From contig CABIVS010000002.1 of assembly GCA_902362375.1 (NCBI GenBank), forward strand, positions 1 to 64,000: 64,000 bases of DNA, in the 5' to 3' direction. The translations under genes and the position numbers were made by a program. The stretch's first letter is position 1. Every line of letters begins with the position of its first letter. This document shows, piece after piece, positions 16,271 through 34,536 of this stretch. The stretch comes from Bacteroidaceae bacterium (GTDB lineage Bacteria > Bacteroidota > Bacteroidia > Bacteroidales > Bacteroidaceae). The notes beneath the pieces are model-generated. The model was not told the DNA's origin and made no database searches. It was given only the letters and a program-made list of their open reading frames with translations.

Positions 16271-18352
16271 TTAATATCCCGGATTCTGCATTGCTTTCTT
16301 TTCTTCATTACTTAGTGCAGAACCATTTGAATTGGTGATACCATCCAGGAAGGCTTGAGGAATCGGACGATAGTAATGTTTCTCCGGTTTGAATTCACCA
16401 AGACCTCTGCTGACACCATCGTTGAATTTATGCCAACGTGCGTCTAATGTTTTGGTACGCGCCAGATCCTCCCAGCGTTGCAATTCGCCACAAAGCTCAC
16501 GGGTACGTTCATTTAATAGGAAGCACATCATTTTGTCTGCATTGGATGTACAGCCCAGTTCGTTGTAGATAGGGGTGTCGACTGTAGAGTTATAAACATC
16601 TGCCACACTATTTAATTTCATTGTTGTTTTAGTAGAAGCAGTAGTCTCCTGTCCGATATTGTTTGACTCATAATAAGTGTTCTCTTCCCAGTAAATAGCA
16701 CCTTCGGAAGAATGCCCGCCACCTTTTCCGGAACAATAAGGATTATTCTTATAAGCTTGTCCGCCATCTACATTCTTACTACGGTCTTCACCTGTTTCGT
16801 AACCGGCACGTTCACGCAGTTTATTTATCCATTCGATAGCTTTGTCGTAATTGGCTTCCCCTTTACGAATATACGCTTCGGCAACCATTAATACATCATC
16901 TGCCGAACGGGCGATGATGGCATCGCGAGTACCGAATTGAGATGCAATGGAAACACGGTAACCATCCCGGAATTTAGATAAAGCTACTGAACGCTTGTGA
17001 GGTATGATATCGTAATAATTGCCCGTTTTCTCATTTATATTCCAGCTGTGTTCCTGTCCTTTGAAATAACGTACATATGTATATGTATTGCACATTTTTC
17101 CATCTTTCAAAACAGTATATGCCGGAGCGTTGGAATATTTCTCATATCGGTTGTCTCCCGGGTCATTAACGATGTATTTCATACCGAGTTCACCTCCACT
17201 AAAACGTTTGTCGCCTTCTTTTACACCTGCCGGGGCATATGGCATATCTTCTGCTGTCCAGGTGGGAGCACTTTTGGTCTCGTTGGCTCCATAACAGGTA
17301 ATGAATGATTTCCAGAAACGAGAGTCATTGACACGGTCAAACACCTGCATAGTATATTCTGTGGCACTCACATATGAGAATTCACGTCCTCCGGAGATGT
17401 CGCGTTTACATCCACCTATATCATTACCTTGATATACGGCCGGATAATAAAGATGCATCTGATTTCCATAACGTCCCCATGTTGATTCGTCGTTAGAGAA
17501 TTGAGCTGCCAGAACCACTTCACTTACTTTTTCATTGGCTCCGTTCGGCTGCTCATAGTCCCAAAGTTCTACATAGTCATTGCACAACGGATGTGCATCT
17601 ACCACTTCCGAACCATATTGAATCACAGCATCAAGGTCGGATGCTACATAATTACTGTTCCAGTCACTGTACAATTCGGATGCCCGGAATAAATGCGCTT
17701 TTGCGAGGAAATGGGCGGCAGCGTATTTATTGATTCGTCCAATCGATTCACCTTTATCCGGAAGTAGTCTGTAGGCTTCTCCAAAATCTGATATAATCTG
17801 GGTGTATATTTCTTCAGCAGAATTTCGTGTGAAATATGTTTCCGCACTTGTGGACGGAACTAATTTTAACGGTACGCCACCAAATTGCTTCACTAATTCG
17901 AAATAAGCATAAGCCCTTAGAAAATGCGCTTCTCCCAGACGTGTGTTATATGAGGGTGAACTTTGGTTATAATATTGAGGTATATTCTGGATTAATATGT
18001 TTGCGGGTTCAACCAGTCCGTAGTAATTGTCCCAGACAGGTTGGTTGGCATCTTTCTCAGATGAATTTAAATCTTGGCTATAGTGGTTCCATGCAGGGAT
18101 AACATTGTTAGCATCGGTAAATTCATCCACTCCCATGTTGTAACACTGAATACCCCATATATAGTTGAATTTGAATTTTAGTTTCTGGTAGGCTCCAGTC
18201 ACTAATTCATCAAGTCCTTCCTGTGTCTTAAAGCGGTCAGTACTATATTGAGTTGTTAAATTCTCATCAAGGAAAGATTCACTGCACGAAGTGATCGAAC
18301 TTCCTGTTGCGCCGGCTATTAGAGCTGCAAATAATATTCTATTTAATTTCAT
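16271..18352 (-). CDS. SusD/RagB-family glycan-binding lipoprotein
   Basis: Outer-membrane lipoprotein that caps its SusC partner and captures oligosaccharides. It has 693 residues, a lipobox ending SITSC, and acidic residues just after it (CSESFLDEN) that fit the Bacteroides surface-export signal. SusD features are the N-terminal segment followed by TPR-like helices (LGEAHFLRAYAYFELVKQFGGVPL near 145-170), and a C-terminal part ending with ERTRELCGELQRWEDLARTKT in shortened form and QNPGY. It begins 24 bp after the SusC stop, forming a two-gene operon. The promoter appears to lie inside the invertible cassette upstream of SusC. Confidence 0.95.
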   Translation of the reverse strand: MKLNRILFAALIAGATGSSITSCSESFLDENLTTQYSTDRFKTQEGLDELVTGAYQKLKFKFNYIWGIQCYNMGVDEFTDANNVIPAWNHYSQDLNSSEKDANQPVWDNYYGLVEPANILIQNIPQYYNQSSPSYNTRLGEAHFLRAYAYFELVKQFGGVPLKLVPSTSAETYFTRNSAEEIYTQIISDFGEAYRLLPDKGESIGRINKYAAAHFLAKAHLFRASELYSDWNSNYVASDLDAVIQYGSEVVDAHPLCNDYVELWDYEQPNGANEKVSEVVLAAQFSNDESTWGRYGNQMHLYYPAVYQGNDIGGCKRDISGGREFSYVSATEYTMQVFDRVNDSRFWKSFITCYGANETKSAPTWTAEDMPYAPAGVKEGDKRFSGGELGMKYIVNDPGDNRYEKYSNAPAYTVLKDGKMCNTYTYVRYFKGQEHSWNINEKTGNYYDIIPHKRSVALSKFRDGYRVSIASQFGTRDAIIARSADDVLMVAEAYIRKGEANYDKAIEWINKLRERAGYETGEDRSKNVDGGQAYKNNPYCSGKGGGHSSEGAIYWEENTYYESNNIGQETTASTKTTMKLNSVADVYNSTVDTPIYNELGCTSNADKMMCFLLNERTRELCGELQRWEDLARTKTLDARWHKFNDGVSRGLGEFKPEKHYYRPIPQAFLDGITNSNGSALSNEEKKAMQNPGY

Positions 18353-18376: not shown

Positions 18377-21300
18377 TTAGAATCCAATGTTGACACCTAT
18401 TACAAAACTCTTCAAAGTGGTAGGTGAGCCAAATGTCTTGGTGTTATTGTCATAGTTTACCAAGTCAGTATCCAAAAAGTCACATGCCTTATAGATATTG
18501 AATGGATTCATGGCTTGAACATACAACTTCAGATTATTGATACCCAAATTCTTTAATTGCTGTGGGGCAAAGTTATAACCCAATGAAATATTACGAACTT
18601 TGATGTATGAGCCATCCTGATAGTTCATTGCACTGTTAAAGGCATCGGCTCCTTCACCGTTAGAACCGGGTGAATAGTATTTTGCATTCTCATTGGTACC
18701 GGCCACCCAATAGTCTACTTTACGCTGCATATAGCGACCGTCAAGAGTAACGGCTCCCTGTGGAACTGTAAAACCCCAGCGTGATAGAATAAAGAAGGAC
18801 AGTTCAAAATTCTTATAACTGAAAGTATTACTCCATCCACCTGTCCAGCGTGGACGTGTGTGCCCTACAATTTTCTTATCGTCATTAGCATCAATTTTGC
18901 CGTCATTATTTAAATCTTTCACTTTGATTTGTCCCGGTTTACGTCCATATTTGGCAGCTTCTTCAGCTTCTTCTGTTTTCCAGATGCCATCATATACCCA
19001 GTCGTAATAAACGCCGATTTCTTCACCGACAAACCATTTATTGTTCACATCTTCCGTTCTACCATTGGACAATTCGTCAATTCGGTTTCTGTCCATTGAC
19101 CATGTTAAAGTAGTGCTCCAAGAAAAATCTTTTGTTTGTACAGGTATTGCATTTACTTGTAGGTCAATACCATATCCGGATGTTTTACCCACATTCGCAT
19201 AAGTGGAAACATAACCCGTTAGCGAAGGAATTGACATTTCCAGTAACAAATCATCTGTTTTCGTTTTGTATGCATCGACACTACCGGTAAGTCGGTTATT
19301 AAAGAAACCATAGTCAATACCGACATTGTATTGTGTAGTTCTTTCCCAGCCTAGAGTCGGATTAGCCATTTTGGCGGGTTCCTTCTGTGAAGGATCTGAA
19401 GGTACATAACCCAGAGATGAGTCATTCTGTCCCCAGTTATAGTATAAACCTGTGATGGCACCTTTGGTTGCATATGCTTTGATTGCCGCATTACCTGTAA
19501 CACCCATACCTACACGAAGTTTCAACTGATTCAGCCAACTGATGTCTTTCAGGAAATCTTCCTGATCCATTCTCCATGCGATAGCAGCAGAGGGGAAACT
19601 GGCCCATTTGTGTCCTTCGGCTAATTGAGAGGCACCGTCCCAACGCATAGATGCTGTTAGCAAGTACTTATCTTTATAACCATAATTCAGGCGAATCATA
19701 TAAGAAGCCATTTGAGTTTCGGTCAGTCCTGTGCCGAAAGAGTTCAGTGTGCCGGCAGAGCCTATATTATACCAAAGCTCATCCGATGAGGCTACATTAG
19801 TGGCTCTCATATCTCCCATCTCGTAATGGTAGGCAGAAGCGGATTGCATCAATGTCATTCCCAAATTATGCTGTCCCAGAGACTTGTTGTAATAGATCAG
19901 GTTATCTAATGTCCATGCACGTTTTTGTTCGTTTTTATATTGTGCACCATTGTTACCGTCCCCATTAATACCATCAGCAGCGTTAGCAACTCCTAAGGTG
20001 TAGAATTGGAATTCAGGGCCAAACTGAAGACGATAGGACAAACCTTCCAATGGTTTCCAGATTTTACCGAAATCAATTTGTGAATACAAACTGGCAGAAG
20101 CGCGGAAAGTGCGGCGTTGATTAGTATTATAGTCCAATTCGCGAATAGGGTTGATGATATTTACATCACCACTCGGATAACGGACATATTCACCGTTTTC
20201 ATCGTAAGGCACTGTCCAGGGGATCATACCTCTTAATGCACTATAGAAATCACCCGAACCGGTTACAGATTTTGAGAAACTGTATCCATAGTCTTGAGTT
20301 GAATACGATGCATTGATTGAAGAACCCATTTTGAACCAATCGACAGGAGTTACGTCAAATGAGGTTTTCAATGTATAGCGTTCGTATGCTTGTCCCGGTT
20401 GTGTACCTTTCTGGTCCAGATAGCCGAATGAGGCATAGCCTTGAAATTTGTCAGACCCTCCGGATGCGCTTAAGGTATGTTCGTGAGTGATCCCTGTTTG
20501 TTTGCCGTGAGAAGTCCAGTCGTATGAACCTACTAAAGATGGATCGTAAACTCCGTTTACCCATGCCTTCTCGATGTTCTGCCATGAAGAGGTTACACTG
20601 CCGAATGCAGCTTTATCTGCTTCATAAGTCGGAGTGGCGGAAGCATAAGATCCTGCATTGTATTTAGCTAAGCGGGCATAATCCAGCCATTCGGAGGCAG
20701 ACATCATCTTTGTTACATCGTGTAGTGTTTCAAAAGTGACAGTACCGGAATAGTTCAGGGTTACCTTCCCTTCTTTTCCTTTTTTAGTAGTCACAAGAAT
20801 GACACCATTGGCACCACGTGAACCATAAATTGCTGTGGCTGAAGCATCTTTCAGAATGTCAATAGATTCAATATCGGAAGGATTGATGTTTTCAATGCCT
20901 CCATTTTGAATGACCATACCGTCTACCACATACAACGGACCCTGTTCCGCATTAATGGAGCGTTGTCCACGGATATTAATGTTACCGACCTCTCCGGGAC
21001 GTTGACTGGACGTGATATCTACACCGGCTGTTTTGCCTTGCATTCCTTCCAGTGCGTTTCTTACAGGCATTGCTTTCAGTTCTTTTTCTCCTACGCGAGC
21101 CATAGCACCGGTTACGTCACTTTTTTTCTGGACTCCATATCCTACAACTACTACTTCGTCTAAGGTTTCTGTATCTTCTTGAAGAGTAATTTGGAAGTTA
21201 GTATTTCCGGCCACGGATACTTCTTGTTTTTTATATCCTATATAAGTGATAGTGATTGTACCTTTCATTGGCACATTGGAAAGAGAAAACTTGCCATTTA

Positions 21301-21508
21301 AATCGGTAATTGTACCATTAGTAGTACCATTAACCAATACACTGGCACCAATAACCGGTTCTCCGGTGAAATCTGTAACTGTGCCCGAAATTGTCTTATT
21401 CTGGGCATAAGATTCTACTATTAAAAAAGAAAACAAAGTGAGGAGAAATAGCCGTCGGATAGTATCCTTATAGGCGTACAGGTGATTACCTTTTTTGTTG
21501 CTTTTCAT
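18377..21508 (-). CDS. SusC/RagA-family TonB-dependent transporter
   Basis: Outer-membrane beta-barrel importing glycan fragments with its SusD partner. The 1,043 residues show a signal peptide ending SYAQN, a carboxypeptidase-D-like domain (ISGTVTDFTGEPVIGASVLV, about 40-115), the TonB-box-like stretch ETLDEVVVVGYG, a plug domain with ILKDASATAIYGSRGANG, and a barrel ending in a C-terminal aromatic (VIGVNIGF). No STN domain is present, consistent with HTCS rather than sigma/anti-sigma control. The start is preceded by a roughly 255-nt untranslated leader that includes the left inverted repeat. In the present orientation the HTCS-type promoter at 21771-21817 faces this gene. Confidence 0.95.
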   Translation of the reverse strand: MKSNKKGNHLYAYKDTIRRLFLLTLFSFLIVESYAQNKTISGTVTDFTGEPVIGASVLVNGTTNGTITDLNGKFSLSNVPMKGTITITYIGYKKQEVSVAGNTNFQITLQEDTETLDEVVVVGYGVQKKSDVTGAMARVGEKELKAMPVRNALEGMQGKTAGVDITSSQRPGEVGNINIRGQRSINAEQGPLYVVDGMVIQNGGIENINPSDIESIDILKDASATAIYGSRGANGVILVTTKKGKEGKVTLNYSGTVTFETLHDVTKMMSASEWLDYARLAKYNAGSYASATPTYEADKAAFGSVTSSWQNIEKAWVNGVYDPSLVGSYDWTSHGKQTGITHEHTLSASGGSDKFQGYASFGYLDQKGTQPGQAYERYTLKTSFDVTPVDWFKMGSSINASYSTQDYGYSFSKSVTGSGDFYSALRGMIPWTVPYDENGEYVRYPSGDVNIINPIRELDYNTNQRRTFRASASLYSQIDFGKIWKPLEGLSYRLQFGPEFQFYTLGVANAADGINGDGNNGAQYKNEQKRAWTLDNLIYYNKSLGQHNLGMTLMQSASAYHYEMGDMRATNVASSDELWYNIGSAGTLNSFGTGLTETQMASYMIRLNYGYKDKYLLTASMRWDGASQLAEGHKWASFPSAAIAWRMDQEDFLKDISWLNQLKLRVGMGVTGNAAIKAYATKGAITGLYYNWGQNDSSLGYVPSDPSQKEPAKMANPTLGWERTTQYNVGIDYGFFNNRLTGSVDAYKTKTDDLLLEMSIPSLTGYVSTYANVGKTSGYGIDLQVNAIPVQTKDFSWSTTLTWSMDRNRIDELSNGRTEDVNNKWFVGEEIGVYYDWVYDGIWKTEEAEEAAKYGRKPGQIKVKDLNNDGKIDANDDKKIVGHTRPRWTGGWSNTFSYKNFELSFFILSRWGFTVPQGAVTLDGRYMQRKVDYWVAGTNENAKYYSPGSNGEGADAFNSAMNYQDGSYIKVRNISLGYNFAPQQLKNLGINNLKLYVQAMNPFNIYKACDFLDTDLVNYDNNTKTFGSPTTLKSFVIGVNIGF

Positions 21509-21698: not shown

Positions 21699-21730
21699 TA
21701 TTAAGTTAAACAAAAGTTAGATTCTCTTTT
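21699..21730. repeat. Left inverted repeat of the invertible cassette
   Basis: 32 bp (starting TATTAAGTTAAAC, ending GATTCTCTTTT) that is the exact reverse complement of 23280-23311. The next base on either side does not match. It lies in the leader between the promoter at 21771 and SusC. Confidence 0.95.
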
Positions 21731-21770
21731 TAAAAGAAACTTTTTACATTCTACCTGTGAAAAAGTGTTG

Positions 21771-21817
21771 CAAACATAACGACTTAATCAAGATATAGCA
21801 ATGCAGAATCGTACAAA
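21771..21817 (-). promoter_or_regulatory. HTCS-type promoter inside the cassette, facing SusC
   Basis: On the minus strand: operator-like TTTGTACGATTCTGCATTGC (21817-21798), ending in a -33-like TTGC, 19-bp spacer, -7 box TATGTTTG (21778-21771). Sixteen of 20 operator bases match the copy at 57551-57570. Transcription would start about 21764 and cross the left inverted repeat into SusC. After inversion the same promoter would start near 23246 and run rightwards into the fimbrillin/SusC operon. Confidence 0.75.
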
Positions 21818-21952
21818 TGCATGGAAAATACCGTCTTTTGCACGATATTCCATGTTATGGGTGCGATTTTCGATTGGTGACCAATGACTATGAATCTTTT
21901 TGTTTCTATTTTATTGTATTGAAAATAGTAATTTATAAACCTAAAAAACGAT

Positions 21953-23131
21953 ATGGCGAATTTTTCAATTGTAATTGTTCCAACTAAAAAATTATCAAAT
22001 GGCAGACATCGGATAAGGGTAGCAGTAGCCCACCATTCACAAACCAGATATATATCTACCCAGTTTACTTTGGATTCTGCCAACCAGTTAAAAAATGGTA
22101 GAGTAGTAAGGCATGAGAATGCTGCAAATATGAACATTTGTCTTCGAAGACTAATCAATGAGTATGAGGAAATTGTTACATCAATCAGCTATTTACCTGT
22201 AATCTCATGTACTGAGCTAATACGTATTATCACTTATGAACAAAAGAAAAAAGGAATCACTTTTCAAACTGTTGCGAAAGAGTATATGGATTTTATGAAA
22301 GGAAAAGAACGGGAGAAATCTTATAAACTCTACAAGATAGCTACAGAGAGATTCATTAAGTATATGAATGGAGATTTCCCTCTAATACAGTTGAGTCCTC
22401 TCCATATACAAGGATTTTCAAAAGCTCTCCGTAAAGAGAATCTGGCAGATACTACTATCAGGATATATTTGACTCTGATAAAAGTCGTATTGAATTATGC
22501 AGGTAAAATGAACTATGTAACTTATTCTATCCATCCTTTTGTTCTCTTTAAAATGCCTGCAAGTAATGTACGAGAACTCGATTTGTCAGTAGATGAATTA
22601 AAGAGAATACGAGACACTCGTCTTTTTAAATCTTCTCAATCTATAGTAAGAGATATTTTTATGCTTACTTATTATTTAGGTGGTATTAACTTGAGAGATT
22701 TGTTGGCATATAATTTTAAAGATAAAAAGTATATGAGATATATACGTCATAAAACACGTAATAGTAAAAAAGGAGAGAATGAAATTGCATTTACTCTACA
22801 ACCCGAAGCAAAAGCTATCATAGATAAATATCTGACTAGAGACGGGTATTTAAAATTTGGAAAGTATTCATCTTATAGACAGATATACAGTTTGATTTTT
22901 CGACATATAGACAAGGTGGCACGACTTTCAGGGATAAGTAAAAAGGTTACTTACTATTCTGCTCGAAAGACATTTGCACAACATGGATATAATTTAGGAA
23001 TCCAAATTGAGAAAATAGAGTATTGCATAGGGCACAGTATGAAAAACAATCGTCCTATATTCAATTATATCAAAATTATGCAAGAACATGCTGATAAAGT
23101 ATTTAGGGAAATATTAAATCAGTTATTATAA
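21953..23131 (+). CDS. Tyrosine recombinase (site-specific DNA invertase)
   Basis: Integrase-family protein of 392 residues, predicted to recombine the 32-bp inverted repeats that flank it. It has an N-terminal arm-binding domain, a SAM-like core-binding domain (about 100-205) and a C-terminal catalytic domain. Catalytic residues are visible: Arg248 (GGINLRDLL), Lys267 (RHKTRNSKKG), Arg338 in YYSARKTFA, His361 in CIGHSMKNN and the nucleophile Tyr372 in FNYIKI. The usual HxxR His is Tyr, as is common in Bacteroides recombinases; the next position is Lys rather than His. Nothing is truncated, so it should be active. The gene is visibly more AT-rich than the glycosidase genes. It reads away from SusC and towards the fimbrillin operon, with a hairpin just after its stop. 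Confidence 0.9.
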   Translation: MANFSIVIVPTKKLSNGRHRIRVAVAHHSQTRYISTQFTLDSANQLKNGRVVRHENAANMNICLRRLINEYEEIVTSISYLPVISCTELIRIITYEQKKKGITFQTVAKEYMDFMKGKEREKSYKLYKIATERFIKYMNGDFPLIQLSPLHIQGFSKALRKENLADTTIRIYLTLIKVVLNYAGKMNYVTYSIHPFVLFKMPASNVRELDLSVDELKRIRDTRLFKSSQSIVRDIFMLTYYLGGINLRDLLAYNFKDKKYMRYIRHKTRNSKKGENEIAFTLQPEAKAIIDKYLTRDGYLKFGKYSSYRQIYSLIFRHIDKVARLSGISKKVTYYSARKTFAQHGYNLGIQIEKIEYCIGHSMKNNRPIFNYIKIMQEHADKVFREILNQLL

Positions 23132-23146
23132 AACGTTGATTCTTTT

Positions 23147-23171
23147 ATGCCTCGTCTTGAGGCATTTCTTC
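23147..23171 (+). terminator. Hairpin after the recombinase gene
   Basis: ATGCCTC-GTCTT-GAGGCAT followed by TTTCTT, 16 bp after the recombinase stop. It is a modest intrinsic terminator that would insulate whichever operon lies downstream in each orientation. Confidence 0.55.
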
Positions 23172-23189
23172 TGTTTTCAAGTTTTTTCT

Positions 23190-23210
23190 CTATTGAAGAT
23201 TCTTCAATAG
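23190..23210. promoter_or_regulatory. Perfect 21-bp dyad inside the cassette
   Basis: CTATTGAAGA-T-TCTTCAATAG is symmetric about one base, 70 bp inside the right inverted repeat. With a one-base centre it suits protein binding better than an RNA hairpin. It may be an operator or an accessory site for inversion. Confidence 0.5.
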
Positions 23211-23279
23211 CTGCCTCATTATTGTCTAACGGTAACTCTCTAATCCTAATAATGCTTTGATAAACAAGGCTTTCAAGTC

Positions 23280-23311
23280 AAAAGAGAATCTAACTTTTGT
23301 TTAACTTAATA
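23280..23311. repeat. Right inverted repeat of the invertible cassette
   Basis: 32 bp (starting AAAAGAGAATC, ending TTTAACTTAATA), exact reverse complement of 21699-21730. It contains TAACTT twice, 11 bp apart, as a direct repeat, which may reflect recombinase-binding half sites. Confidence 0.95.
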
Positions 23312-23450: not shown

Positions 23451-24467
23451 ATGAAAATAAACTATGTAACGGCTGCTTTTGCTCTGCTGCTTTTGGCGGG
23501 ATGCAGTAATGACGTGAAAGAATCTGATATCAAGTTCGCAGGAGAAACAGGTGCAAAAGTTTCTTTTAGTGCAGTGATTAATAATCAAGAGGCAAGCGAA
23601 CTTAAGACTAGAGCTACGGAAACAAGTTGGGAAATGGGTGACTTGGTTGGAATTACATGCGGATCCCGGCAGGTGAATATTGAGTATGAATATACCGGTG
23701 GTGAAAATAGCTTGTTTGCCGCAAAAAGTGGATATGCTGAAGATATCTGGGTATTAGGTACTCAAGAATATGATGTGACAGCTTATTATCCGTTCACTGG
23801 AACATCAGGTACGGAAGCTGAAACCATTGAAGTGTCTACTGATAGTGAAAATCAGGCTACAGCAGAAAAACGTGAACAGATTGACTTTCTTTATGCATCA
23901 GGAAAGGCAACTGCCGAAACTCCCAATGTAAAATTAGCATTTAATCATGTAATGAGTCGTATCAAACTGACTTTTACAGCTGGTACGAATGTTACATTGT
24001 CGGATATCACATGCTACCTTATTAATTTGAAGAAGAACGGGACATTTAATCCGAATACAGGAGAAACAACTGTAAGTATAGAATCTGTAACGTCGGATGA
24101 TGATATTGTATGGACTAAAGTAGGTGCAGCTGATAATTATACGATACAGGCTATCTTATTACCGCAAACTCCACAGAAAGAAGTCTATATCCAAGCAGGA
24201 ATGAACGGATATTATTACGAAGTTCACTTTCCGAATTTGACAAAATTGGAGCCTGGGGTTTCTTATAATTATACTATTCAAGCTAATGAGTATAAAGATA
24301 ATCCTTTTGTATTAACTATTACCGAAGAGACACAAATCATTGGATGGAAAAATGAAGATGGCGGAACTGTTGAGTCAGATCCGAGTGTAGCAGGAACAGG
24401 TACGAACATCACTAATCCAAGCTGGAATATCACAGAAGAAACTATTACTCCTACATCCAAAAAATGA
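23451..24467 (+). CDS. Fimbrillin-family (Mfa-like) lipoprotein
   Basis: Lipoprotein of 338 residues from the ATG at 23451 (MKINYVTAAFALLLLAGC). An upstream ATG at 23415 adds 12 residues that spoil the signal peptide and overlap the degenerate repeat. The mature part has fimbrillin-family features: TRATETSWEMGDLVGI, TAYYPF, DFLYASGKA and LAFNHVMSRIKLTF. Such proteins usually form pili or act as surface adhesins. As the first gene of a SusC/D operon it may instead be a surface glycan-binding protein. No HTCS-type promoter faces it in the present orientation; inversion of the cassette would supply one about 205 nt upstream. Confidence 0.8.
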   Translation: MKINYVTAAFALLLLAGCSNDVKESDIKFAGETGAKVSFSAVINNQEASELKTRATETSWEMGDLVGITCGSRQVNIEYEYTGGENSLFAAKSGYAEDIWVLGTQEYDVTAYYPFTGTSGTEAETIEVSTDSENQATAEKREQIDFLYASGKATAETPNVKLAFNHVMSRIKLTFTAGTNVTLSDITCYLINLKKNGTFNPNTGETTVSIESVTSDDDIVWTKVGAADNYTIQAILLPQTPQKEVYIQAGMNGYYYEVHFPNLTKLEPGVSYNYTIQANEYKDNPFVLTITEETQIIGWKNEDGGTVESDPSVAGTGTNITNPSWNITEETITPTSKK

Positions 24468-24517: not shown

Positions 24518-26086
24518 ATGAAAGTATATAACTATATATCAATGCTTCTTCTTGGAGTAGTGTCCTTGGCTTCTTGTTCGCAGGATGACGGGATAGAAGG
24601 TGAAAATATGGGAACTTTACAAGGCTTCCAAATCAGCGTATCTGAAGATGGCTTTCAAACTGTAAATGCTCCTGGAACGCGGGCTACGGAGAATAATTAT
24701 ACAACTAAATTTTCCGAAGGCGATATGATTGGTATTTTCGCAGTCAAAGGTGAAAATATTGTTGAAGATATAAATAACCGCCAATTTACGTATCAGGATG
24801 GGGAATGGGTGTTGACCGACGGTGAAGATGCTATAGAATATAAAGGTTCGGAGTTCTCTAAAATGAACTTTTATGCTTATTATCCCTATGACTCTAAAGT
24901 TACTTTCGAACCTGCGAATGATGATCCTTTCGTTACATATGTCAGCAATTGGAAAGTTGGAGTAGACCAAAGTGGTGATAACTATACTAAGTATGATTTG
25001 ATGACAAGCACAGGGACTGTACAAGGTGACCGCTTGAAAGGGTCAATTGCTTTTACCATGCAGCATAGAATGGCGATGGCTGTGATACAAATGCCTGAAA
25101 AGGTGTATACCTTTACAAATACGGATGTAACACTGGAAGATTATAAATTGCCTGTAACTGTAGGTTCTTTTACTATAGATAATGTGGAGGCATCTCCTTA
25201 TTATCAGGCAAGTACAGATACTTATCGCTTTTTGGTGAAACCCAATACGGCTTTTTCTATCAAAGGGACTTATACTGGAGCACAAGAAATGGATTATGCT
25301 GCTAACGGTACTTTGGAAAGTGGAACTGCAAAAAAATATGTGATCGAGGACACAAATAAGAGTTCACATCTTTTGGCTGTAGGAGACTATTATTGTGCAG
25401 ATGGTTCTATTGTCAGCAAAGATGTAGAAACTGCACCAGACAATGTAATCGGTATTGTATATCATGTAGGTAATCCGCAACCGTCAATAACAACTCCTGC
25501 TACATATACAGAAACAAATGATGCATTGCGCCGTGATTATCCAAGCTGTACGCATGGACTCGTACTGGCTATAACTTACCCGTCAGTTGGTGGAACACAA
25601 ACTGCTGCATTTTCAACTAATAGAGATGTGTTTTTTGGCGGCTGGTATTCAACGGATGAAGATTGGTCGGATAAATTTGTAGCTTGTACAACATATAATA
25701 CTTCCATTGCAGCATATTTGGGATATAACAATACAGTATTAATGACGATGTCTCCTAATACATTTGTGTGCGACAAGGCTGTAAGTTATGTTGAGGCTTA
25801 TCGTGGAGCAGTTTTCGTGCCTGCTTCTGCCTCTAGCTGGTATCTTCCCTCTTTATACGAATTAGATGAACTCGTAAATGTTATATCTACCGTTCAAGAA
25901 AGTATTAAAAACGCAGGTGGAGAGGCTCTGGCTGTAGGTAGTCGTCATTGGAGTAGTAATGAACGTACAGGAAATACAACGGTAATATATCAGCATATAC
26001 TTCAGGCTACAGGAGCATACCTGGTTGATAAATATCGAAACCAAGGAGGAGCAGCTGGTTATTTCCCTATGATGCTTGCATTTTAA
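24518..26086 (+). CDS. Fimbrillin-like lipoprotein with C-terminal DUF1566-like domain
   Basis: Lipoprotein of 522 residues (lipobox SLASC, then SQDDGIEGEN with a surface-export-like acidic run). The N-terminal half matches the fimbrillin pattern of its neighbour: TRATENNYTTKFSEGDMIGIF in shortened form, NFYAYYPYD and FTMQHRMAMAVI. The C-terminal part (about 400-520) contains SSWYLPSLYELDEL and SRHWSSNE, which resembles DUF1566/lectin-like modules found in surface proteins. It is probably a surface-exposed binding protein paired with the preceding gene, 50 bp downstream of it and about 105 bp before SusC. Carbohydrate binding is inferred only from context. Confidence 0.75.
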   Translation: MKVYNYISMLLLGVVSLASCSQDDGIEGENMGTLQGFQISVSEDGFQTVNAPGTRATENNYTTKFSEGDMIGIFAVKGENIVEDINNRQFTYQDGEWVLTDGEDAIEYKGSEFSKMNFYAYYPYDSKVTFEPANDDPFVTYVSNWKVGVDQSGDNYTKYDLMTSTGTVQGDRLKGSIAFTMQHRMAMAVIQMPEKVYTFTNTDVTLEDYKLPVTVGSFTIDNVEASPYYQASTDTYRFLVKPNTAFSIKGTYTGAQEMDYAANGTLESGTAKKYVIEDTNKSSHLLAVGDYYCADGSIVSKDVETAPDNVIGIVYHVGNPQPSITTPATYTETNDALRRDYPSCTHGLVLAITYPSVGGTQTAAFSTNRDVFFGGWYSTDEDWSDKFVACTTYNTSIAAYLGYNNTVLMTMSPNTFVCDKAVSYVEAYRGAVFVPASASSWYLPSLYELDELVNVISTVQESIKNAGGEALAVGSRHWSSNERTGNTTVIYQHILQATGAYLVDKYRNQGGAAGYFPMMLAF

Positions 26087-26191
26087 AAGCATCAGGATAA
26101 TTTGCTATAAGAAATATGTTGAGGATGTTGTCTAAAATAAATGGAGCGACTCTTTCAATATGCGATTAAAAAACTATTATGAGTGATAAAT

Positions 26192-29100
26192 ATGAATAAG
26201 AAAAACTTAATAAAAGGAACTGCTCTTCCTGTCGCACTGTTTTTCTCCTTCGCCCTGCTTCCGAGTTTCGGTAATCAAGGACAAGTCTTTGCTGCCATGG
26301 ACGTAGTCCAGCAGCAAGGCTTCATCAAAGGAACGGTGGTAGATGATAAAGGCGAACCGGTGATCGGTGCGAATGTAGTTGTTGAAAGCACTAATATCGG
26401 TACAATCACCGATATTGATGGTGTGTTCAAAGTCAATGTACGCCCAGGTACAAAATTGAAAATATCCTTTATTGGATATAGCGACCAGATAGTGGCGGCA
26501 AAGAAAGATATGCGGGTTGTGCTGGTCGAAGATGCTACTGCCTTGCAAGAGGTAGAAATCGTAGCTTATGGTATGCAGAAAAAAGTGACTATGACCGGTG
26601 CGATTGCCAGTGTGAAGAGTGAGGCTTTGACACGTACATCTGTAGGTTCTGTTTCTAATGTATTGGGAGGTCAAATGACAGGTTTGACTACTGTACAGTA
26701 TTCCGGTGAGCCGGGTTCGGATGCTGCAGATATTTTTATTCGTGGTAAAGCAACGTGGGCAGATTCTACTCCATTGATACAAGTGGATGGCGTGGAACGT
26801 AGCATGAATGATATTGACCCGAATGAAATAGAGTCCATTTCTATCCTGAAAGATGCTTCGGCAACTGCTGTGTTTGGTGTTCGTGGTGCTAATGGTGTTA
26901 TCTTGATAACTACTAAACGTGGTAGAGAAGGAAAGGCGAAAATTTCGTTTACTACTTCAGCTTCCGTATTGATGCCGACTAAAATGGTGGAGACGGCCAA
27001 TTCGTATGACTATGCAACGTTTTATAATCAGATGCGTGCCAATGATGGGAAAGAAGCGATGTTTAGTGATGCGGTAATTCAGAAATTTAAAGATGGATCT
27101 GATCCTATTCGTTTCCCAAGTATTAACTGGGTCGATTATATCATGGGAGATGCCACCTTGCAAAGTCAACATAATGTTAATATATCCGGAGGTACGGATA
27201 AAGTACGTTATTTCATTTCTGCCGGAGCTTATACACAAGGGGGACTTTTCAATGAATTTCAGTTACCTTATAACATCAGTTATCAGTATCGTCGGTTCAA
27301 CTACCGAAGTAATCTGGATATGGATGTGACAAAAACAACCACTCTGTCTTTTAATGTGGCGGGTAATGTTAATTCTTCTGATAAACCACGTACAAGTCAG
27401 GGCTCATCAGGTATGGTGAAAAATATCTATTATGCCACTCCATTCAAAAGTGCCGGTTTTGTAAATGATAAATTGGTTTACACTACAACTGACAGCTATG
27501 ATGATGGAATGAGCCTGCCTTTTACTGGTGATATCGACCCATTTACTTACTATGGAGGTGGTGCTACTCGCACTAGTAATAACTCATTGAACGCTGACCT
27601 TGTTCTGGATCAGAAATTGGATTTTATCACGAAGGGACTTTCATTCAAATTGAAAGGATCTTATAATAGTTCATTCACTGTTTACAAATATCTATCCGGT
27701 GGAACAGAAATGACTTATAACCCTGTATTGTCAAGTGAGGGTATAGTAAATCTGCGCCCTGTGGATGGGAGTAAGTATACAGATGTAAGTTATAGTAGTG
27801 GTACAGGTAAATCGCGTGATTGGTATATGGAGGCAGGATTGAATTATAATCGTTCTTTCGGAAACCACAATGTAGGTGCATTGTTACTTTACAATCAGTC
27901 CAAAGAATATTATTATTCAAATACAGAATATCCGGATGTTCCGCGTGGTTATGTCGGACTGGTAGGACGTGTCACTTATGACTGGAAGAATCGTTATATG
28001 ATTGAAGCTAATATGGGTTATAACGGTTCTGAGAACTTTGCTCCGGATAAACGTTTTGCTCTTTTTCCTGCAGGTTCTGTGGGTTGGGTGATGAGCGAAG
28101 AAAATTGGTTTCAACGTGCAAAACCGTTCGTTAGTTTCTTGAAATTACGTGCTAGTTTCGGATTGGTAGGTAATGACAAGATCAGTGGTAGCCGGTTTAT
28201 GTATACAGCTGACCCGTATAGCGTTAACTTAAATGATTTAACCAATCGATATGCAAGTTCTTCCGGTAGTGGTGGCTATGGCTATTTTTTCGGAACGGAC
28301 GGTCTGAATGTTACAACTAGCAAAGGAGCCTACGAAAAATCAAAAAATAATCCGGACGTATCATGGGAAAAAGCTTTCAAGCAGAATTATGGCATGGATA
28401 TCAACTTCTTTGATGACCGATTATCCGCTACAATCGAATATTACAAGGAACATCGTTGGGACATTCTGTTGCAGGATGGAACAGCGCCAGGTATGCTGGG
28501 ATTTACCACACCATATTCAAATCTTGGGGAAGTGAAAAACTGGGGATGGGAATTATCACTGAAATGGAATGATAGAATAGGTAAGAATTTCCGTTATTGG
28601 GCAGGGATTAATCTCTCTTACAACCAGAATGAGATCATTGAACGTAAAGAATCACCGCAAGATTACGACTATCAGTATTTGAAAGGTCACCGCATTGGTT
28701 CGCGTAGCCAGTATGTTTTTTGGCGTTATTACGATGAAAGTACTCCCGAACTGTATGAAAAGACATTCAATCGTCCATTCCCAACACATTCAGTAGACTT
28801 GAAAAATGGGGATGCTGTGTACGTTGACTTAAATGGTGACCGTCAAATAGACTCTAACGATATGAGTTACGACTATGGATTTACGGATGATCCGGAATAT
28901 ATGGTTGGTCTTAATTTCGGATTTGCCTGGAAGAATTGGGAAGTAAATACACAGTGGACAGGGGCTTGGAATGTAAGCCGTATGATTTCAGATGTATTCC
29001 GTCAGCCCTTTGTCTCTTCTGCTACCAAGACCGGGGGGGGACTGTTGGCTTACCACTTGACCAATACATGGACTACAGAGAATCCTTCGCAGAATGCGGA

Positions 29101-29386
29101 ATATCCTCGTGCAACTTGGGATAATGCGGACAATAACTATGCCACTTCTACACTGTATGAGAAAGATGCCAAGTACTTGCGTCTGAAAACGCTTACCGTG
29201 TCTTATAACTTCCAGTTTCCTTTCATGAAGAGATTAGGATTGAACACCTGTCAATTGGCATTCAGTGGTTACAATCTGTTGACGTTTACCCCATACCTTT
29301 GGGGAGATCCGGAAGCAACAGCAAGTAATGCACCTTCCTATCCATTGACTAAGACCTATACAGTGAGTTTGAAATTAGGATTCTAA
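26192..29386 (+). CDS. SusC/RagA-family TonB-dependent transporter
   Basis: Outer-membrane importer of 1,064 residues from the ATG at 26192; a GTG three codons upstream is less likely. After the signal peptide come a carboxypeptidase-D-like domain (IKGTVVDDKGEPVIGANVVV), the TonB-box-like ALQEVEIVAYGMQKK, a plug with FIRGKATWADSTPLIQVDGV and ILKDASATAVFGVRGANG, and a barrel ending YTVSLKLGF. A run of eight G residues at 29033-29040, inside codons for Thr-Gly-Gly-Gly, is a potential slippage site. It pairs with the SusD starting 22 bp downstream. It is not the partner of the minus-strand SusC, whose plug and tail sequences are clearly different. Confidence 0.95.
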   Translation: MNKKNLIKGTALPVALFFSFALLPSFGNQGQVFAAMDVVQQQGFIKGTVVDDKGEPVIGANVVVESTNIGTITDIDGVFKVNVRPGTKLKISFIGYSDQIVAAKKDMRVVLVEDATALQEVEIVAYGMQKKVTMTGAIASVKSEALTRTSVGSVSNVLGGQMTGLTTVQYSGEPGSDAADIFIRGKATWADSTPLIQVDGVERSMNDIDPNEIESISILKDASATAVFGVRGANGVILITTKRGREGKAKISFTTSASVLMPTKMVETANSYDYATFYNQMRANDGKEAMFSDAVIQKFKDGSDPIRFPSINWVDYIMGDATLQSQHNVNISGGTDKVRYFISAGAYTQGGLFNEFQLPYNISYQYRRFNYRSNLDMDVTKTTTLSFNVAGNVNSSDKPRTSQGSSGMVKNIYYATPFKSAGFVNDKLVYTTTDSYDDGMSLPFTGDIDPFTYYGGGATRTSNNSLNADLVLDQKLDFITKGLSFKLKGSYNSSFTVYKYLSGGTEMTYNPVLSSEGIVNLRPVDGSKYTDVSYSSGTGKSRDWYMEAGLNYNRSFGNHNVGALLLYNQSKEYYYSNTEYPDVPRGYVGLVGRVTYDWKNRYMIEANMGYNGSENFAPDKRFALFPAGSVGWVMSEENWFQRAKPFVSFLKLRASFGLVGNDKISGSRFMYTADPYSVNLNDLTNRYASSSGSGGYGYFFGTDGLNVTTSKGAYEKSKNNPDVSWEKAFKQNYGMDINFFDDRLSATIEYYKEHRWDILLQDGTAPGMLGFTTPYSNLGEVKNWGWELSLKWNDRIGKNFRYWAGINLSYNQNEIIERKESPQDYDYQYLKGHRIGSRSQYVFWRYYDESTPELYEKTFNRPFPTHSVDLKNGDAVYVDLNGDRQIDSNDMSYDYGFTDDPEYMVGLNFGFAWKNWEVNTQWTGAWNVSRMISDVFRQPFVSSATKTGGGLLAYHLTNTWTTENPSQNAEYPRATWDNADNNYATSTLYEKDAKYLRLKTLTVSYNFQFPFMKRLGLNTCQLAFSGYNLLTFTPYLWGDPEATASNAPSYPLTKTYTVSLKLGF

Positions 29387-29407
29387 CCGTTTTTAGAAAG
29401 AAAAAAT

Positions 29408-31426
29408 ATGAAACAACGATATAAATGGCTCGTCAGAGCAGTGATAGGGGGGATTCTTTGCATAGGTTCTGTATCCTGTGTGGACGAAATTAAATTTGGA
29501 AATAGCTTCCTTGATAAAGCACCGGGCGGAACGGCTACTAAAGATACGGTGTTTAACAGTGCTACCTATACGCGTCAATTTCTGAATTCCTGCTACAGTC
29601 GCCAATATTATGGACTGCCTTATGGAAATAGCTCGAATGTCGATTTCCCGGACTCATCTAATCCTTATCTGGGAAAGTTTGATGCGTTGACTGACTGTTG
29701 GCAACTTCATTATGAGTCTACTACCATTTACAATAGTTACTATAGTGGTACACACACAGCCAATTATGGAACGCGTGGTGATATCTTTGGGTACACTCGT
29801 GAGGTAGTGTGGCAGGTTGTACGCTGGTGTTGGTTGTTATTGGAGAATGTGGATAATGTACCGGGTATGAGCGATACAGAAAAAACAAAGATAAAAGCAG
29901 AAGCTAAGTGTATAATGGCTGCCCGCTATTTTGATATGTTCCGCCATTACGGAGGATTACCATTAGTTTACGAATCATTTTCCGGAACAGAATCAAGCTA
30001 TAACTTACCGCGTGCTACTGTGGAGGAAACAGTAAAATATATGATTAACCTGTTGGATGAAGCTATTAATTCAGGAGGGCTTGAATGGGCTTATACAGGA
30101 GCGGATGCTACTACTGAAACGGGACATTGGACAAAAGCCGGAGCGATGGCTCTGAAGTGTAAAATCTGGCAGTTTGCTGCTTCTCCTCTATTTAATGCCA
30201 GCCAGGGATATGCAGGCGGAAGCAGTGAAGCTGAACAACAACATCTGGTGTGGTACGGAAGCTATCGTTCAGAACTTTGGGACAACTGCTTGGCAGCCTG
30301 CAAGGAGTTCTTCAACGCTATGGCAGTGAATGGATTCTATCAGCTGAAAGAAGCAACTGGTGATACTCCTGCTGATTACCGCTATGCTTATCGTATGGGA
30401 TATGTATTGCTGAATAGTCCCGAAGTGTTACACTCTGTCCGTGTAAATGGGTATGAGACAACCGGTGGTTCTTCAAGTTATTTCTGGCATGCCTGGTGTA
30501 ACAATGGTCGTAATTCATATACCCCCACACAAGAATATGTGGAAATGTTTCCTTGGGCAGATGGTACACCTTTCGATTGGGATAAGACTGAAGCAGAAGG
30601 TAAGTTGGACGAGATGTTCCTGAAGGGGACTTTTAAAGATGGGGAACAAACACTTTCAGATCTTGATTTAACACGTGACCCACGTCTATATGAATCGGCG
30701 ATAGTGAACAACGTACCTGAAAATCTAGGATGGTCTTCTGCCAGCATGAGTGGTGACCCGTGGGAGCTTTGGGTAGGCGGCTCGGATGCCGGAACAAGCT
30801 CTTTCCTGGAGAGTGGACGTTTTGCCACCGGTTACGAGAATATGAAATACTACTTGAGTGATAGCGATTATAATCGCCAGGGGGTACATTGGGTATATCT
30901 TCGTTTGTCCGACCTTTATTTGACTTATGCAGAAGCATTGCTTCAAGCCAACAATGATCTTCAAGGAGCTGTAAACCAAATTGATATTGTGCGTGCTCGT
31001 GTCGGACTGCCCGGACTCGTGAAATGTAATCCCGACAAGAATCTGCTTTCTGACAAAGACGCTTTACTGGAAGAACTATTGCGTGAACGTGCCTGTGAAC
31101 TAGGTATGGAAGATAGCCGTTACTTTGACTTGGTTCGTTACAAACGTGCCGATCGATTCGAAACTCCTTTGCATGGATTGCTGATCTATCGTTTGGATAG
31201 TAATGGTTCACCTATAGAGAAAGCATGGCGTGAAGGATCTGATAAAACAACAAGTAAGAATGGCGGTGCTTTGCAGCCTGTAAAGTTTAGTTATAAAAAG
31301 TTCCAATTGAAAAACAGAACGCGTGTCTGGTGGACAAAAGGTTTTGATTCCAAGTGGTACCTTTCTCCGTTCCCACAGAGTGAAATCAACAAAGGATATG
31401 GGTTGATTCAGAATCCGGGATGGTAA
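29408..31426 (+). CDS. SusD/RagB-family glycan-binding lipoprotein
   Basis: SusD-like lipoprotein of 672 residues with lipobox IGSVSC. Characteristic blocks include KAEAKCIMAARYFDMFRHYGGLPLVYE (shortened here, about 160-185), TKAGAMALKCKIWQFAASPLFN in part, LSDLYLTYAEALLQAN, and the C-terminal LLRERACELGMEDSRYFDLVRYKR region ending LIQNPGW. It lies directly after its SusC partner and is predicted to bind RG-I oligosaccharides at the cell surface. Confidence 0.95.
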   Translation: MKQRYKWLVRAVIGGILCIGSVSCVDEIKFGNSFLDKAPGGTATKDTVFNSATYTRQFLNSCYSRQYYGLPYGNSSNVDFPDSSNPYLGKFDALTDCWQLHYESTTIYNSYYSGTHTANYGTRGDIFGYTREVVWQVVRWCWLLLENVDNVPGMSDTEKTKIKAEAKCIMAARYFDMFRHYGGLPLVYESFSGTESSYNLPRATVEETVKYMINLLDEAINSGGLEWAYTGADATTETGHWTKAGAMALKCKIWQFAASPLFNASQGYAGGSSEAEQQHLVWYGSYRSELWDNCLAACKEFFNAMAVNGFYQLKEATGDTPADYRYAYRMGYVLLNSPEVLHSVRVNGYETTGGSSSYFWHAWCNNGRNSYTPTQEYVEMFPWADGTPFDWDKTEAEGKLDEMFLKGTFKDGEQTLSDLDLTRDPRLYESAIVNNVPENLGWSSASMSGDPWELWVGGSDAGTSSFLESGRFATGYENMKYYLSDSDYNRQGVHWVYLRLSDLYLTYAEALLQANNDLQGAVNQIDIVRARVGLPGLVKCNPDKNLLSDKDALLEELLRERACELGMEDSRYFDLVRYKRADRFETPLHGLLIYRLDSNGSPIEKAWREGSDKTTSKNGGALQPVKFSYKKFQLKNRTRVWWTKGFDSKWYLSPFPQSEINKGYGLIQNPGW

Positions 31427-34400: not shown

Positions 34401-34536
34401 AGGTAGTGCCAAGTTGTATGTCCGTGGAGTAGACTTACTTTGTTTTGACCACATTGATGTGGCGGATCCGGAATCTTACGGTGCGACAAACCCGCTGAAT
34501 AAGAGCGTGGTAGTTGGTGTGATAATAGGTTTTTAA
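31465..34536 (+). CDS. Second SusC/RagA-family TonB-dependent transporter
   Basis: Outer-membrane importer of 1,023 residues. It has a signal peptide (LACLSIPGGAQN), a carboxypeptidase-D-like domain (ITGVVVDKWGNPVYGASVQV), a plug with TFYIRGLQSLSSSSPLILVDG and SILKDAAAVALYGYKGINGA, shown here in part, and a barrel ending VVVGVIIGF. The usual GANG plug motif reads GING and the pre-plug stretch DVGANRTFTRHES diverges, so this is a distinct SusC subfamily from the one two genes upstream. It is 38 bp after the first SusD in the operon, followed 22 bp later by its own SusD. Confidence 0.95.
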   Translation: MKKYKILVLALLACLSIPGGAQNTDNNITGVVVDKWGNPVYGASVQVAGLPSVRVETDKNGKFEIAAEAGRSLQVVTSDKGSTTVKVEKNGKPVRIVMDYGAETIDVGANRTFTRHESTAAVSTVYNEEFNKRASKDISNSLFGQGLGLTTLQNAGNYSTVEPTFYIRGLQSLSSSSPLILVDGLERDMSLITPEEVESVSILKDAAAVALYGYKGINGAVLVTTKRGKYNTREVNFTYDHVTNFQVRRPEFADAATYAEAINEARGYEGLSARYTSDEINMFRNGTVTGSGIGANISAMLPYLYPNVDWIDETFKNTGISNKYTIEFRGGGNKFRYYTMVGLLTDKGFIKNANMNDGYSTQDKYSRANLRSNLDIDLTNTTKLKLNILGTLAESSRPGASADLWNMVYSLPPSAFPVRTEDGTWGGNSTWAGTLNPVAQSQGAAYSKGHTRSLFADLTLSQDLSGFVKGLGVDLRLAYDNYSSIWEDHSKTYSYKGYTASWTDPSAGGPMYTTVTGGTPSEMSTSANTNDWTRQFNFSGNINYNRSFGKHDLYSQLKWEYEYRDSYGLNTTIYRQNVSWYTHYGFNKRYYVDLALLGSESSLLAPGHKWAFSPTISAAWVLSEENFLKNTSWIDLLKLRASFGVINADYLPKDGSNTVYDYWDQIYSTSGTMYRFDSGYNSAFGSTYVSRLATVNSTHEKAYKYNVGIDATLFKGLNLTLEGYYQRRKDIWVSSEGQYSTVLGMDAPFENAGIVDSWGTEIGLDYTKRIGNLVFNIGGNFAWNRNEIKEQLEEPRLYNNLVQTGHRLGQVYGMIAEGFFKDKEDIANSLTQNFSTVVPGDIKYKDVNGDGIIDSNDQTAIGYSTTAPEIYYSFHLGAEWKGLGFDAMFQGAGNYSAVLNTKSVFWPLISNSSLSTHYYENRWTPENQNAKYPRLSSESNANNYQTNTIWLADRSFLKLRNLEVYYKFPKRLMERTKILGSAKLYVRGVDLLCFDHIDVADPESYGATNPLNKSVVVGVIIGF

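What the first reader, a model, noticed from the sequence alone, without database searches (positions are those of the whole stretch)
21699..23311. Self-inverting cassette that would hand an HTCS-controlled promoter to one of two SusC/D operons
Seen: a complete tyrosine recombinase gene sits between perfect 32-bp inverted repeats. A promoter with the locus-wide operator (21771-21817) lies inside the segment and points out to the minus-strand SusC/SusD. The plus-strand fimbrillin-SusC/D-SusC/D-PL11 operon on the other side has no such promoter. Inversion would place the promoter near 23232-23239 (-7 box), reading into the plus-strand operon with a leader of about 205 nt. Known: Bacteroides invert promoters for capsules and some surface proteins. 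Inference: here it selects between alternative RG-I import systems under one sensor, and I know of no description of this for a pectin locus.
Basis: partly seen in the sequence, partly recalled or inferred. Interest (0 to 1): 0.95.

Follow-up and report, generated by a model that had tools for sequence, protein, structure and literature searches.

The report
Flip-flop promoter choosing pectin importers
In a gut Bacteroides pectin-use locus, a 1.6-kb DNA cassette carries its own recombinase gene and one predicted outward promoter; related genomes hold it in both orientations between two sets of nutrient-importer genes, so it likely lets each cell hand the pectin sensor's signal to one set or the other.

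Summary
A 1,613-bp cassette (21699-23311) has exact 32-bp inverted repeats, an open tyrosine-recombinase gene and one outward Bacteroides-type -7 box. A 14-nt motif learned only from six other promoters of the locus finds its best held-out match in the window beside that box.

I examined 17 relatives in other genomes (15 with an intact recombinase frame); both orientations occur. Two pairs share about 99% identical flank on one side with the cassette reversed, and the recombinase tree needs 4 orientation changes (at least 3 on well-supported branches). Inversion is thus real between genomes. A homologue of the locus's hybrid sensor lies on the same contig, 8-57 kb away, in 15 of 17 genomes.

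Inferred: the sensor activates one promoter and the recombinase decides which importer operon it serves. One operon is conserved (SusC1 98-99% in two close pairs), the other hypervariable (43-80%), which suggests diversifying selection.

Not shown: flipping within one culture, transcription, sensor binding. 4 of 18 cassettes lack the motif. Invertible promoters and phase-variable SusC/D are known; a sensor-gated two-way selector in a pectin locus was not found in the papers searched. New variant of a known kind.

The parts
21699..21730 (+). Left inverted repeat, TATTAAGTTAAACAAAAGTTAGATTCTCTTTT; core TTAAGTTAAACAAAAGTTA
   Evidence: core found in relatives
23280..23311 (-). Right inverted repeat, exact reverse complement of the left one
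21771..21778 (-). -7 box TATGTTTG of the single outward promoter-like site; faces SusC1 in this orientation, would lie at 23232-23239 facing the fimbrillin operon after inversion
   Evidence: identical in the 8 aligned rows (window and 7 relatives)
21839..21852 (-). Operator-like site 1, TGGAATATCGTGCA
   Evidence: Held-out motif match 16.2 bits, 0/500 nulls; present in relatives
21802..21815 (+). Operator-like site 2, TGCAGAATCGTACA (inverse direction), inside a nearly invariant block of about 56 nt (21799-21854)
21953..23131 (+). Tyrosine recombinase (392 aa) inside the invertible segment; moves with it
   Evidence: Pfam Phage_int_SAM_5, Arm-DNA-bind_5, and Phage_integrase below its curated cut-off; XerA alignment; 1671 homologues at E<=1e-40, best 120 listed
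23147..23165 (+). Terminator-like hairpin after the recombinase, expected to limit read-through into the neighbouring operon
   Evidence: 23131-23215 folds with z -3.9
23190..23210 (.). Palindrome CTATTGAAGATTCTTCAATAG, a second stem
   Evidence: Sequence; fold
18377..21508 (-). SusC1 (TonB-linked outer-membrane transporter), the operon now behind the promoter; the conserved side
16271..18352 (-). SusD1
23451..24467 (+). Fimbrillin-like (Mfa_like_1) protein, first gene of the alternative operon
   Evidence: start inferred from the conserved leader
24518..26086 (+). 522-aa protein without a family match, alternative operon
26183..31426 (+). SusC2 and SusD2, alternative operon
31465..36271 (+). 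SusC3 and SusD3, alternative operon
36301..38391 (+). Rhamnogalacturonan lyase family 11 protein, end of the alternative operon
49283..53575 (+). Hybrid two-component sensor/regulator (Reg_prop, Y_Y_Y, HisKA, HATPase, receiver, AraC-type HTH), presumed activator
   Evidence: homologue on the same contig as the cassette in 15 of 17 genomes
59715..59728 (+). Strongest operator-like site of the locus (before the GH88-domain gene 59896), TGGAAAATTGTACA; further training sites start at 10915, 38490, 45605, 57555, 58246

Best explanation
The 1.6-kb cassette, found in both orientations between two SusC/D importer operons in related genomes, likely is a self-encoded two-way DNA switch that hands one predicted pectin-sensor-controlled promoter to one operon at a time. 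Shown: exact repeats, an open recombinase gene inside, a single outward -7 box, a locus-wide motif beside it, and both orientations in near-identical flanks, with reciprocal junctions at the repeats in the pair read base by base. Inferred: the recombinase recombines the two repeats at a core of about 19 bp. The HTCS at 49283-53575 binds the operator sites when it senses RG-I fragments. In the present orientation SusC1/SusD1 is induced and the fimbrillin-SusC2/D2-SusC3/D3-PL11 operon is silent; after inversion the reverse holds. The enzymes elsewhere in the locus, with their own operator-like sites, would stay induced in both states. The most likely benefit is surface variation, such as escape from phages or antibodies that use one importer, while the ability to eat pectin is kept; a difference in substrate range is the other possibility.
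For: Inversion: the window against G042 (collinear flank 91.9% identical over 7.6 kb) and L054 against L055 (one flank 99.1% over 8.9 kb) have the cassette reversed; L054/L055 swap reciprocally inside TTAAGTTAAACAAAAGTTA. L160 against L161 (one flank 99.0% over 8.1 kb) is also reversed, by alignment. The recombinase tree of 16 rows (15 labelled) needs 4 orientation changes, at least 3 on starred branches; the label is not significantly clustered on it (98-106 of 500 shuffles as low). Dedicated site: in 11 of 11 genomes exactly two sites with at most 1 mismatch to the 18-nt core exist, both flanking the recombinase. Core changes occur in both arms together (AAATG in G002 and G008; C variant in G438). 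Promoter: 14 of 14 cassettes have an outward TAnnTTTG box on the recombinase 5' side (12 exactly one, L057 and L144 two), at 64-65 nt from the repeat core in L057, L144 and L147 too; none of the 12 with an intact recombinase has one on the recombinase strand in its 3' part. L158 and L159 have it as well. In L001, L002, L051 and L052 the repeat ends 7-13 nt before the SusC1 ATG, leaving no room for an outside promoter. Operator: 14 of 18 cassettes have a match at null p<=0.002 on the promoter side; no 3' side scores above 8.5 bits. Regulator: HTCS homologue on the same contig in 15 of 17 genomes, 8-57 kb away. Relics: G009 and G099 keep a similar promoter region, fixed before SusC1, with a single repeat and no close recombinase there. 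Assembly break: in G125 both flanking contigs end at the same point inside the repeat.
Against: No reads were available, so flipping within one culture is not shown; the orientation differences are between genomes held as different species. L054, L055, L056 and L144 show no operator match above chance, and the fixed promoters of G009 and G099 also score low (4.3 and 3.1 bits). The 14 matching cassettes are not independent: seven of them carry the identical best site. In L160 and L161 the only TAnnTTTG match overlaps the repeat, so their -7 box is unclear. In G041 the regulator beside the cassette (59%) is not the genome's best match to the window's HTCS (73%, on another contig), and in G152 it has one stop codon inside. 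The fimbrillin leader holds a TATATTTG box outside the cassette, so low independent expression is possible. The first catalytic arginine of the recombinase is replaced by an invariant Asn (N246) in the alignments; activity is untested. In G125 the break could be a plain repeat-assembly failure. The survey was not exhaustive: recombinase relatives under about 42% identity were not checked for repeats.
Confidence: 0.82

Rival explanations
1. The cassette is an ordinary phase switch whose promoter does not answer to the RG-I sensor; the operator resemblance is incidental or belongs to another regulator.
For: 4 of 18 cassettes lack an operator match above chance; HTCS binding was never measured; invertible promoters without a described sugar sensor are what the read passages report for Bacteroides.
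Against: The held-out 14-nt motif ranks the cassette first outside its training set; the block is nearly invariant even where the flanking operons differ (L004); fixed SusC1 upstream regions of five distant species (L121-L125) carry the motif (12.2-15.0 bits).
Confidence: 0.13
2. The inversion is a slow evolutionary rearrangement, not a phase switch: orientation is fixed for long times in each lineage.
For: Only between-genome differences are seen; five of the seven cassettes that lie between SusC1 and the fimbrillin operon share one state; L002 and L052 (99.5% identical) do not differ.
Against: Two pairs with about 99% identical flank differ in state; the repeats and, in 16 of 18, the recombinase frame are kept; G125 contigs break inside the repeat.
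Confidence: 0.12
3. The element is a small integrating mobile element whose ends are the repeats, and the promoter position is accidental.
For: Integrase-type recombinase; relatives at about 45% identity occur in unrelated loci.
Against: Inverted, not direct, repeats; orientations alternate at a fixed position; the relic in G009 and G099 keeps promoter region and one repeat but no close recombinase.
Confidence: 0.03
4. Mechanism as in the best explanation, but the purpose is substrate choice (two RG-I import systems for different side chains) rather than evasion.
For: Both sides are SusC/D systems in one RG-I locus; SusC1 and SusC2 share only 27% identity.
Against: Between G001 and G015 the alternative operon is 43-71% identical while the other compared genes are 93-100%, which fits evasion better than a fixed substrate.
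Confidence: 0.35

Closest known systems
Bacteroides fragilis Tsr19/BF2766 (EPS promoter IVp-I, distant IVp-II), Tsr0667 (three SusC/SusD clusters) and Mpi, as described in PMC4747536 (passages seen)
   Same: Site-specific recombinase flips promoter or gene segments of surface molecules, SusC/SusD among them
   Different: There each enzyme acts on several regions, and BF2766 lies near its segment; in the 11 genomes the recombinase sits inside the segment with its only two close sites. Kinship of this recombinase with Tsr19 or Tsr0667 was not tested.
Salmonella Hin / H segment (recalled, comes from no call)
   Same: The recombinase gene lies inside the segment that it inverts, with an outward promoter
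   Different: Hin is a serine recombinase and flips one operon on or off; here a tyrosine-type recombinase and operons on both sides
B. intestinalis phase-variable regions (PMC8375218, section 7 read)
   Same: Inversions at TonB-transporter/SusD-type clusters, often with a dedicated recombinase; the species encodes a 75% relative of this recombinase
   Different: The text speaks of whole-cluster inversions and of no sensor-controlled selector; whether one region is this locus could not be told
B. thetaiotaomicron BT1927 S-layer promoter (PMC12548429, passages seen)
   Same: Invertible promoter between repeats, lockable by mutating one
   Different: On/off of one surface protein

Membership tests
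Bacteroides invertible-promoter phase switch | Promoter-like site between inverted repeats next to surface genes | tested here: met
Bacteroides invertible-promoter phase switch | Both orientations occur, with breakpoints at the repeats | tested here: met
   Between genomes:
Bacteroides invertible-promoter phase switch | Both orientations coexist in one population | not testable with these tools
   No reads; only the G125 contig breaks, ambiguous
Bacteroides invertible-promoter phase switch | Downstream expression depends on orientation | not testable with these tools
   No transcript data for this locus
Tyrosine recombinase | Catalytic-domain match and conserved residues | tested here: inconclusive
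   Domain families match, Phage_integrase below its cut-off; K267, R338, H361 and Y372 invariant in a 15-row alignment, but the first Arg is Asn (N246); residue roles assigned by alignment and recall; structure job unfinished
HTCS regulon member | Shares the operator motif of other promoters of the locus | tested here: met
   Held-out motif in the window; 14 of 18 cassettes
HTCS regulon member | Regulator binds and activates it | not testable with these tools
   No binding data
Tsr19 / Tsr0667 recombinase group | Sequence membership | not tested
   Reference sequences not at hand; a simple motif scan for a serine-recombinase neighbour of more distant relatives found none adjacent

The most novel reading that the evidence does not exclude
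The locus is a heritable AND gate: a sugar sensor decides when, and a self-inverting promoter decides which importer. It pairs one conserved default importer with an exchangeable, fast-diversifying alternative module, so a pectin eater can change its exposed receptor set without losing its diet. Recombinase sites fused to SusC start regions (a third copy in G391) would let the gate recruit further importers, and the shared 5' region could let the sensor influence recombinase expression and thus switching.
Probability: 0.35. Interest if true: 0.88.

Novelty: new variant of a known kind. Interest (0 to 1): 0.74.

Why it matters
Glycan use in Bacteroides is usually treated as deterministic sense-and-respond (general knowledge). 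A sensor-gated selector would make part of it a heritable cell-to-cell choice, which bears on phage sensitivity, strain competition on pectin and the reading of RNA-seq from mixed populations. Orientation could be scored from sequencing reads, so the claim is directly testable.

Tried and rejected
A motif built from four cassette-less SusC1 promoters was too narrow: the cassette was its top hit in the window (16.4 bits), but intergenic hits elsewhere were no more than chance, so I trained on the other promoters instead. A guessed operator string gave 0 matches. Looking for a Mpi-type neighbour of distant recombinase relatives gave one serine-recombinase-like ORF far from the recombinase in L067 and none adjacent. 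Relatives at 42-47% identity (L058-L068; L162 and L163) lie in other loci, some beside efflux and histidine-kinase genes, show no copy of the short repeat motif searched, and are not counted; L145 and L146 (partial or split relatives) likewise. Relatives under 42% and a few partial ones (for example in G144, G056, G024) were not looked at for context. Cassette counts: 18 in all (window plus 17), 16 with an intact recombinase frame and 2 (L144, L147) with the recombinase split into two frames; L161 is cut by a contig end, so only one repeat is seen there. For the orientation tree L004 (two similar operons) was unlabelled and L144 and L147 were left out; L056 and L159 have SusC1-like genes on both sides and were labelled by the closer one. 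G156 has unread bases between SusC1 and the fimbrillin gene and was not counted. The genome searches score only the best few candidates of each genome (up to 12, 4), so absences are not firm. The mobile-element idea was dropped for the reasons given under rivals.

Full report
What is there. The window carries a large rhamnogalacturonan-I (RG-I) use locus: GH106, GH28, GH2, GH42, GH88, family-11 and PcRGLX-type lyases, esterases, three SusC/SusD pairs and one hybrid two-component sensor. Between the minus-strand SusC1/SusD1 pair and a plus-strand run of genes (fimbrillin-like protein, a 522-aa protein without family match, SusC2/D2, SusC3/D3, PL11) lies a segment bounded by exact 32-bp inverted repeats, 21699-21730 and 23280-23311. 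It is the longest perfect inverted repeat in the window with arms at most 5 kb apart; the longest in 40 shuffles was 16 bp. Inside are a 392-aa tyrosine-recombinase-type gene and, at its 5' side, a single TAnnTTTG box pointing outward at SusC1. The meaning of TAnnTTTG as the Bacteroides -7 box is recalled. A terminator-like hairpin follows the recombinase.

The operator is real as a sequence pattern. A motif trained by EM on six other promoter regions of the locus, cassette left out, reads TGGAATATTGTACA at width 14. Its best site in the window outside those training regions is 21839-21852 in the cassette (16.2 bits, 0 of 500 null stretches as high), with a second at 21802-21815; the SusC1 leader, the fimbrillin leader and the 3' part of the cassette have none (4.6, 5.3 and 4.7 bits). 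With widths 16, 18 and 20 the cassette sites remain high (3, 2 and 3 of 500 nulls reach them) but no longer come first outside the training set. A pattern count gave 24 matches against 8.0 (sd 2.6) expected, though that pattern was written after looking at the sites.

The cassette exists elsewhere. A genome scan found four close relatives (L001-L004). A search of 158 genomes of the genus gave 43 with a relative at E<=1e-40. I examined 18 new places at 20 kb or less and four more with split or partial frames; with the cassette anatomy came L051-L057, L144 and L147. A search of 399 genomes of the family, overlapping the first, gave 11 at E<=1e-110 and added L158-L161. In all I count 18 cassettes: the window and 17 others, 16 with an intact recombinase frame. 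Relatives at 42-47% identity sit in other loci, several beside efflux and histidine-kinase genes, without a copy of the short repeat motif searched, and are not counted; weaker relatives were not examined for context.

Orientation. In the window and L003 the promoter box faces SusC1; in L001, L002, L051, L052 and L053 it faces the fimbrillin operon. L054 and L055 share a 99.1% identical flank over 8.9 kb on one side, with the cassette (97.8%) reversed; the junctions swap reciprocally within TTAAGTTAAACAAAAGTTA. L160 and L161 share 99.0% over 8.1 kb on the one side that both contigs hold, with the cassette reversed. L057 and L147 are a further opposite pair at 78-82%, though L147's recombinase is split. 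On a recombinase tree of 16 rows, 15 labelled, the state changes 4 times by parsimony and at least 3 times by starred branches; shuffled labels need 5.3 on average and 98-106 of 500 shuffles need as few, so the state follows kinship weakly at best. No reads were available, so coexistence in one culture is not shown. In G125 both flanking contigs end at the same point inside the repeat, and no close recombinase was found in that assembly; this fits mixed orientations but also a plain assembly failure.

A dedicated switch. In 11 of 11 genomes the only two sites within one mismatch of the 18-nt core flank the recombinase. In four more genomes, with a shorter 15-nt pattern, one or two extra sites occur in each; one of them, in G391, is an exact third copy at the start of another SusC operon, with a leader that matches the SusC1-like leader into its coding part. 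That looks like the start of a multi-way shuffle (inference). Changes in the core appear in both arms at once in G002, G008 and G438.

Which promoter serves what. In L001, L002, L051 and L052 the repeat ends 7-13 nt before the SusC1 ATG, so no promoter fits between. All 14 cassettes have an outward TAnnTTTG box on the 5' side of the recombinase (12 exactly one; L057 and L144 two), 64-65 nt from the repeat core in L057, L144 and L147 as well. None of the 12 with an intact recombinase has such a box on the recombinase strand in its 3' part; L144 has one. L158 and L159 have the outward box; in L160 and L161 the only match overlaps the repeat. The fimbrillin leader outside the repeat has TATATTTG at 23422-23429 in the window, kept in 3 of 7 aligned leaders; weak independent expression cannot be excluded. 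In G009 and G099, which have SusC1 at 83% and no relative of the recombinase above 31% listed, a similar promoter block sits directly before SusC1 together with one repeat copy: either a locked relic or a pre-switch state. Five SusC1 relatives at 67-69% (L121-L125) have fixed upstream regions with the motif at 12.2-15.0 bits, while G009 and G099 score 4.3 and 3.1. The cassette promoter may thus be the SusC1 promoter made movable (inference).

Link to the sensor. A homologue of the window's HTCS (53-98% identical) lies on the same contig as the cassette, 8-57 kb away, in 15 of 17 genomes; in the other two (G003, G316) it is on another contig. In G041 the nearby copy (59%) is not the best match of that genome, and in G152 the nearby copy has one stop inside. 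14 of 18 cassettes have the operator motif at null p<=0.002 on the promoter side and none above 8.5 bits on the other; seven of the 14 share one identical best site, so they are not independent. L054, L055, L056 and L144 do not match; their nearby regulators are 53-60% identical to the window's, but L057, L147 and L160 match with regulators of 55-56%, so drift of the regulator does not by itself explain the misses. Binding and induction are untested.

One side conserved, one side hypervariable. Between G001 and G015 the compared enzymes, SusC1/SusD1 (99%), recombinase (98%) and HTCS (97%) are 93-100% identical, while the seven genes of the alternative operon are 43-71%. Window against G042 shows the same: SusC1 98%, HTCS 99%, alternative operon 53-80%, the recombinase itself 86%. 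In L054/L055 the SusC gene beside the cassette is only 78% identical over its matched 5' part amid about 99% flanks. This favours diversifying selection on the surface module, for instance by phages or antibodies, over a fixed second substrate; no experiment here separates the two.

Comparison with what is known. Promoter or segment inversion by Mpi, Tsr19 and Tsr0667 in B. fragilis (PMC4747536, passages), the invertible S-layer promoter BT1927 (PMC12548429, passages), capsule promoters (PMC12118408, passages; PMC13114119, passages) and inversions of SusC-type clusters with dedicated recombinases in B. intestinalis (PMC8375218, section 7 read; passages) are described. A review lists SusCD among inverting loci (PMC12632263, passages); a B. 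thetaiotaomicron transcriptome atlas maps predicted invertons (PMC10994844, passages). Searches for rhamnogalacturonan or pectin with invertible, phase-variable or inversion terms found 0 papers; the listings show none by title on such a locus (searches listed 20 of 31 and 20 of 32). Two key papers were not held. B. intestinalis encodes a 75% relative, so an inversion there may already have been seen without this reading. Verdict: a new variant of a known kind. What is new is the combination: resident recombinase, operons on both sides, a promoter carrying the locus's operator motif, and recurrence across many species.

The recombinase. Alignment with XerA places Asn246 where the first catalytic arginine is expected and Arg338 and His361 at conserved places; the nucleophile is probably Tyr372 (inference). 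PMC8138268 (passages) states that some IntCTnDOT-group enzymes lack that arginine and that in the CTnDOT integrase another arginine substitutes for it, so its absence does not rule out activity; that this recombinase belongs to that group was not tested.

Noticed in passing
window 7790-7870 and 44177-44202: An element with CCGTGAAATCCGTGTAATCCGTGCCT occurs before two esterase genes of the locus, at the first place as an inverted pair; 3 matches against 0.00 expected.
   Followed up: no
L164 8741 (G391): Third exact copy of the repeat core at the start of another SusC operon, sharing leader and first codons with the SusC1-like leader: a possible 13.5-kb inversion partner.
   Followed up: partly
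L144 8354-9362 and L147 9002-10182: Recombinase split into two overlapping frames while both repeats remain; these switches may be frozen.
   Followed up: partly
L159 10809-14999 (G431): The SusC1-like gene facing the promoter is interrupted by an insert with a 301-aa ORF on the other strand.
   Followed up: no
L004 (B. faecis): The cassette sits between two mirror-image fasciclin-SusC-SusD-fasciclin operons, about 29 kb from the HTCS homologue (85%), with nearly the same operator block.
   Followed up: partly
L064 2353-11260 and similar loci: 45%-level recombinases recur beside an efflux (OEP, HlyD, MacB) and histidine kinase/LytTR gene set and a DUF5053 gene; role unknown.
   Followed up: no
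window 23426-23437: A 12-nt piece of the repeat recurs just before the fimbrillin start, perhaps an older recombination site.
   Followed up: no
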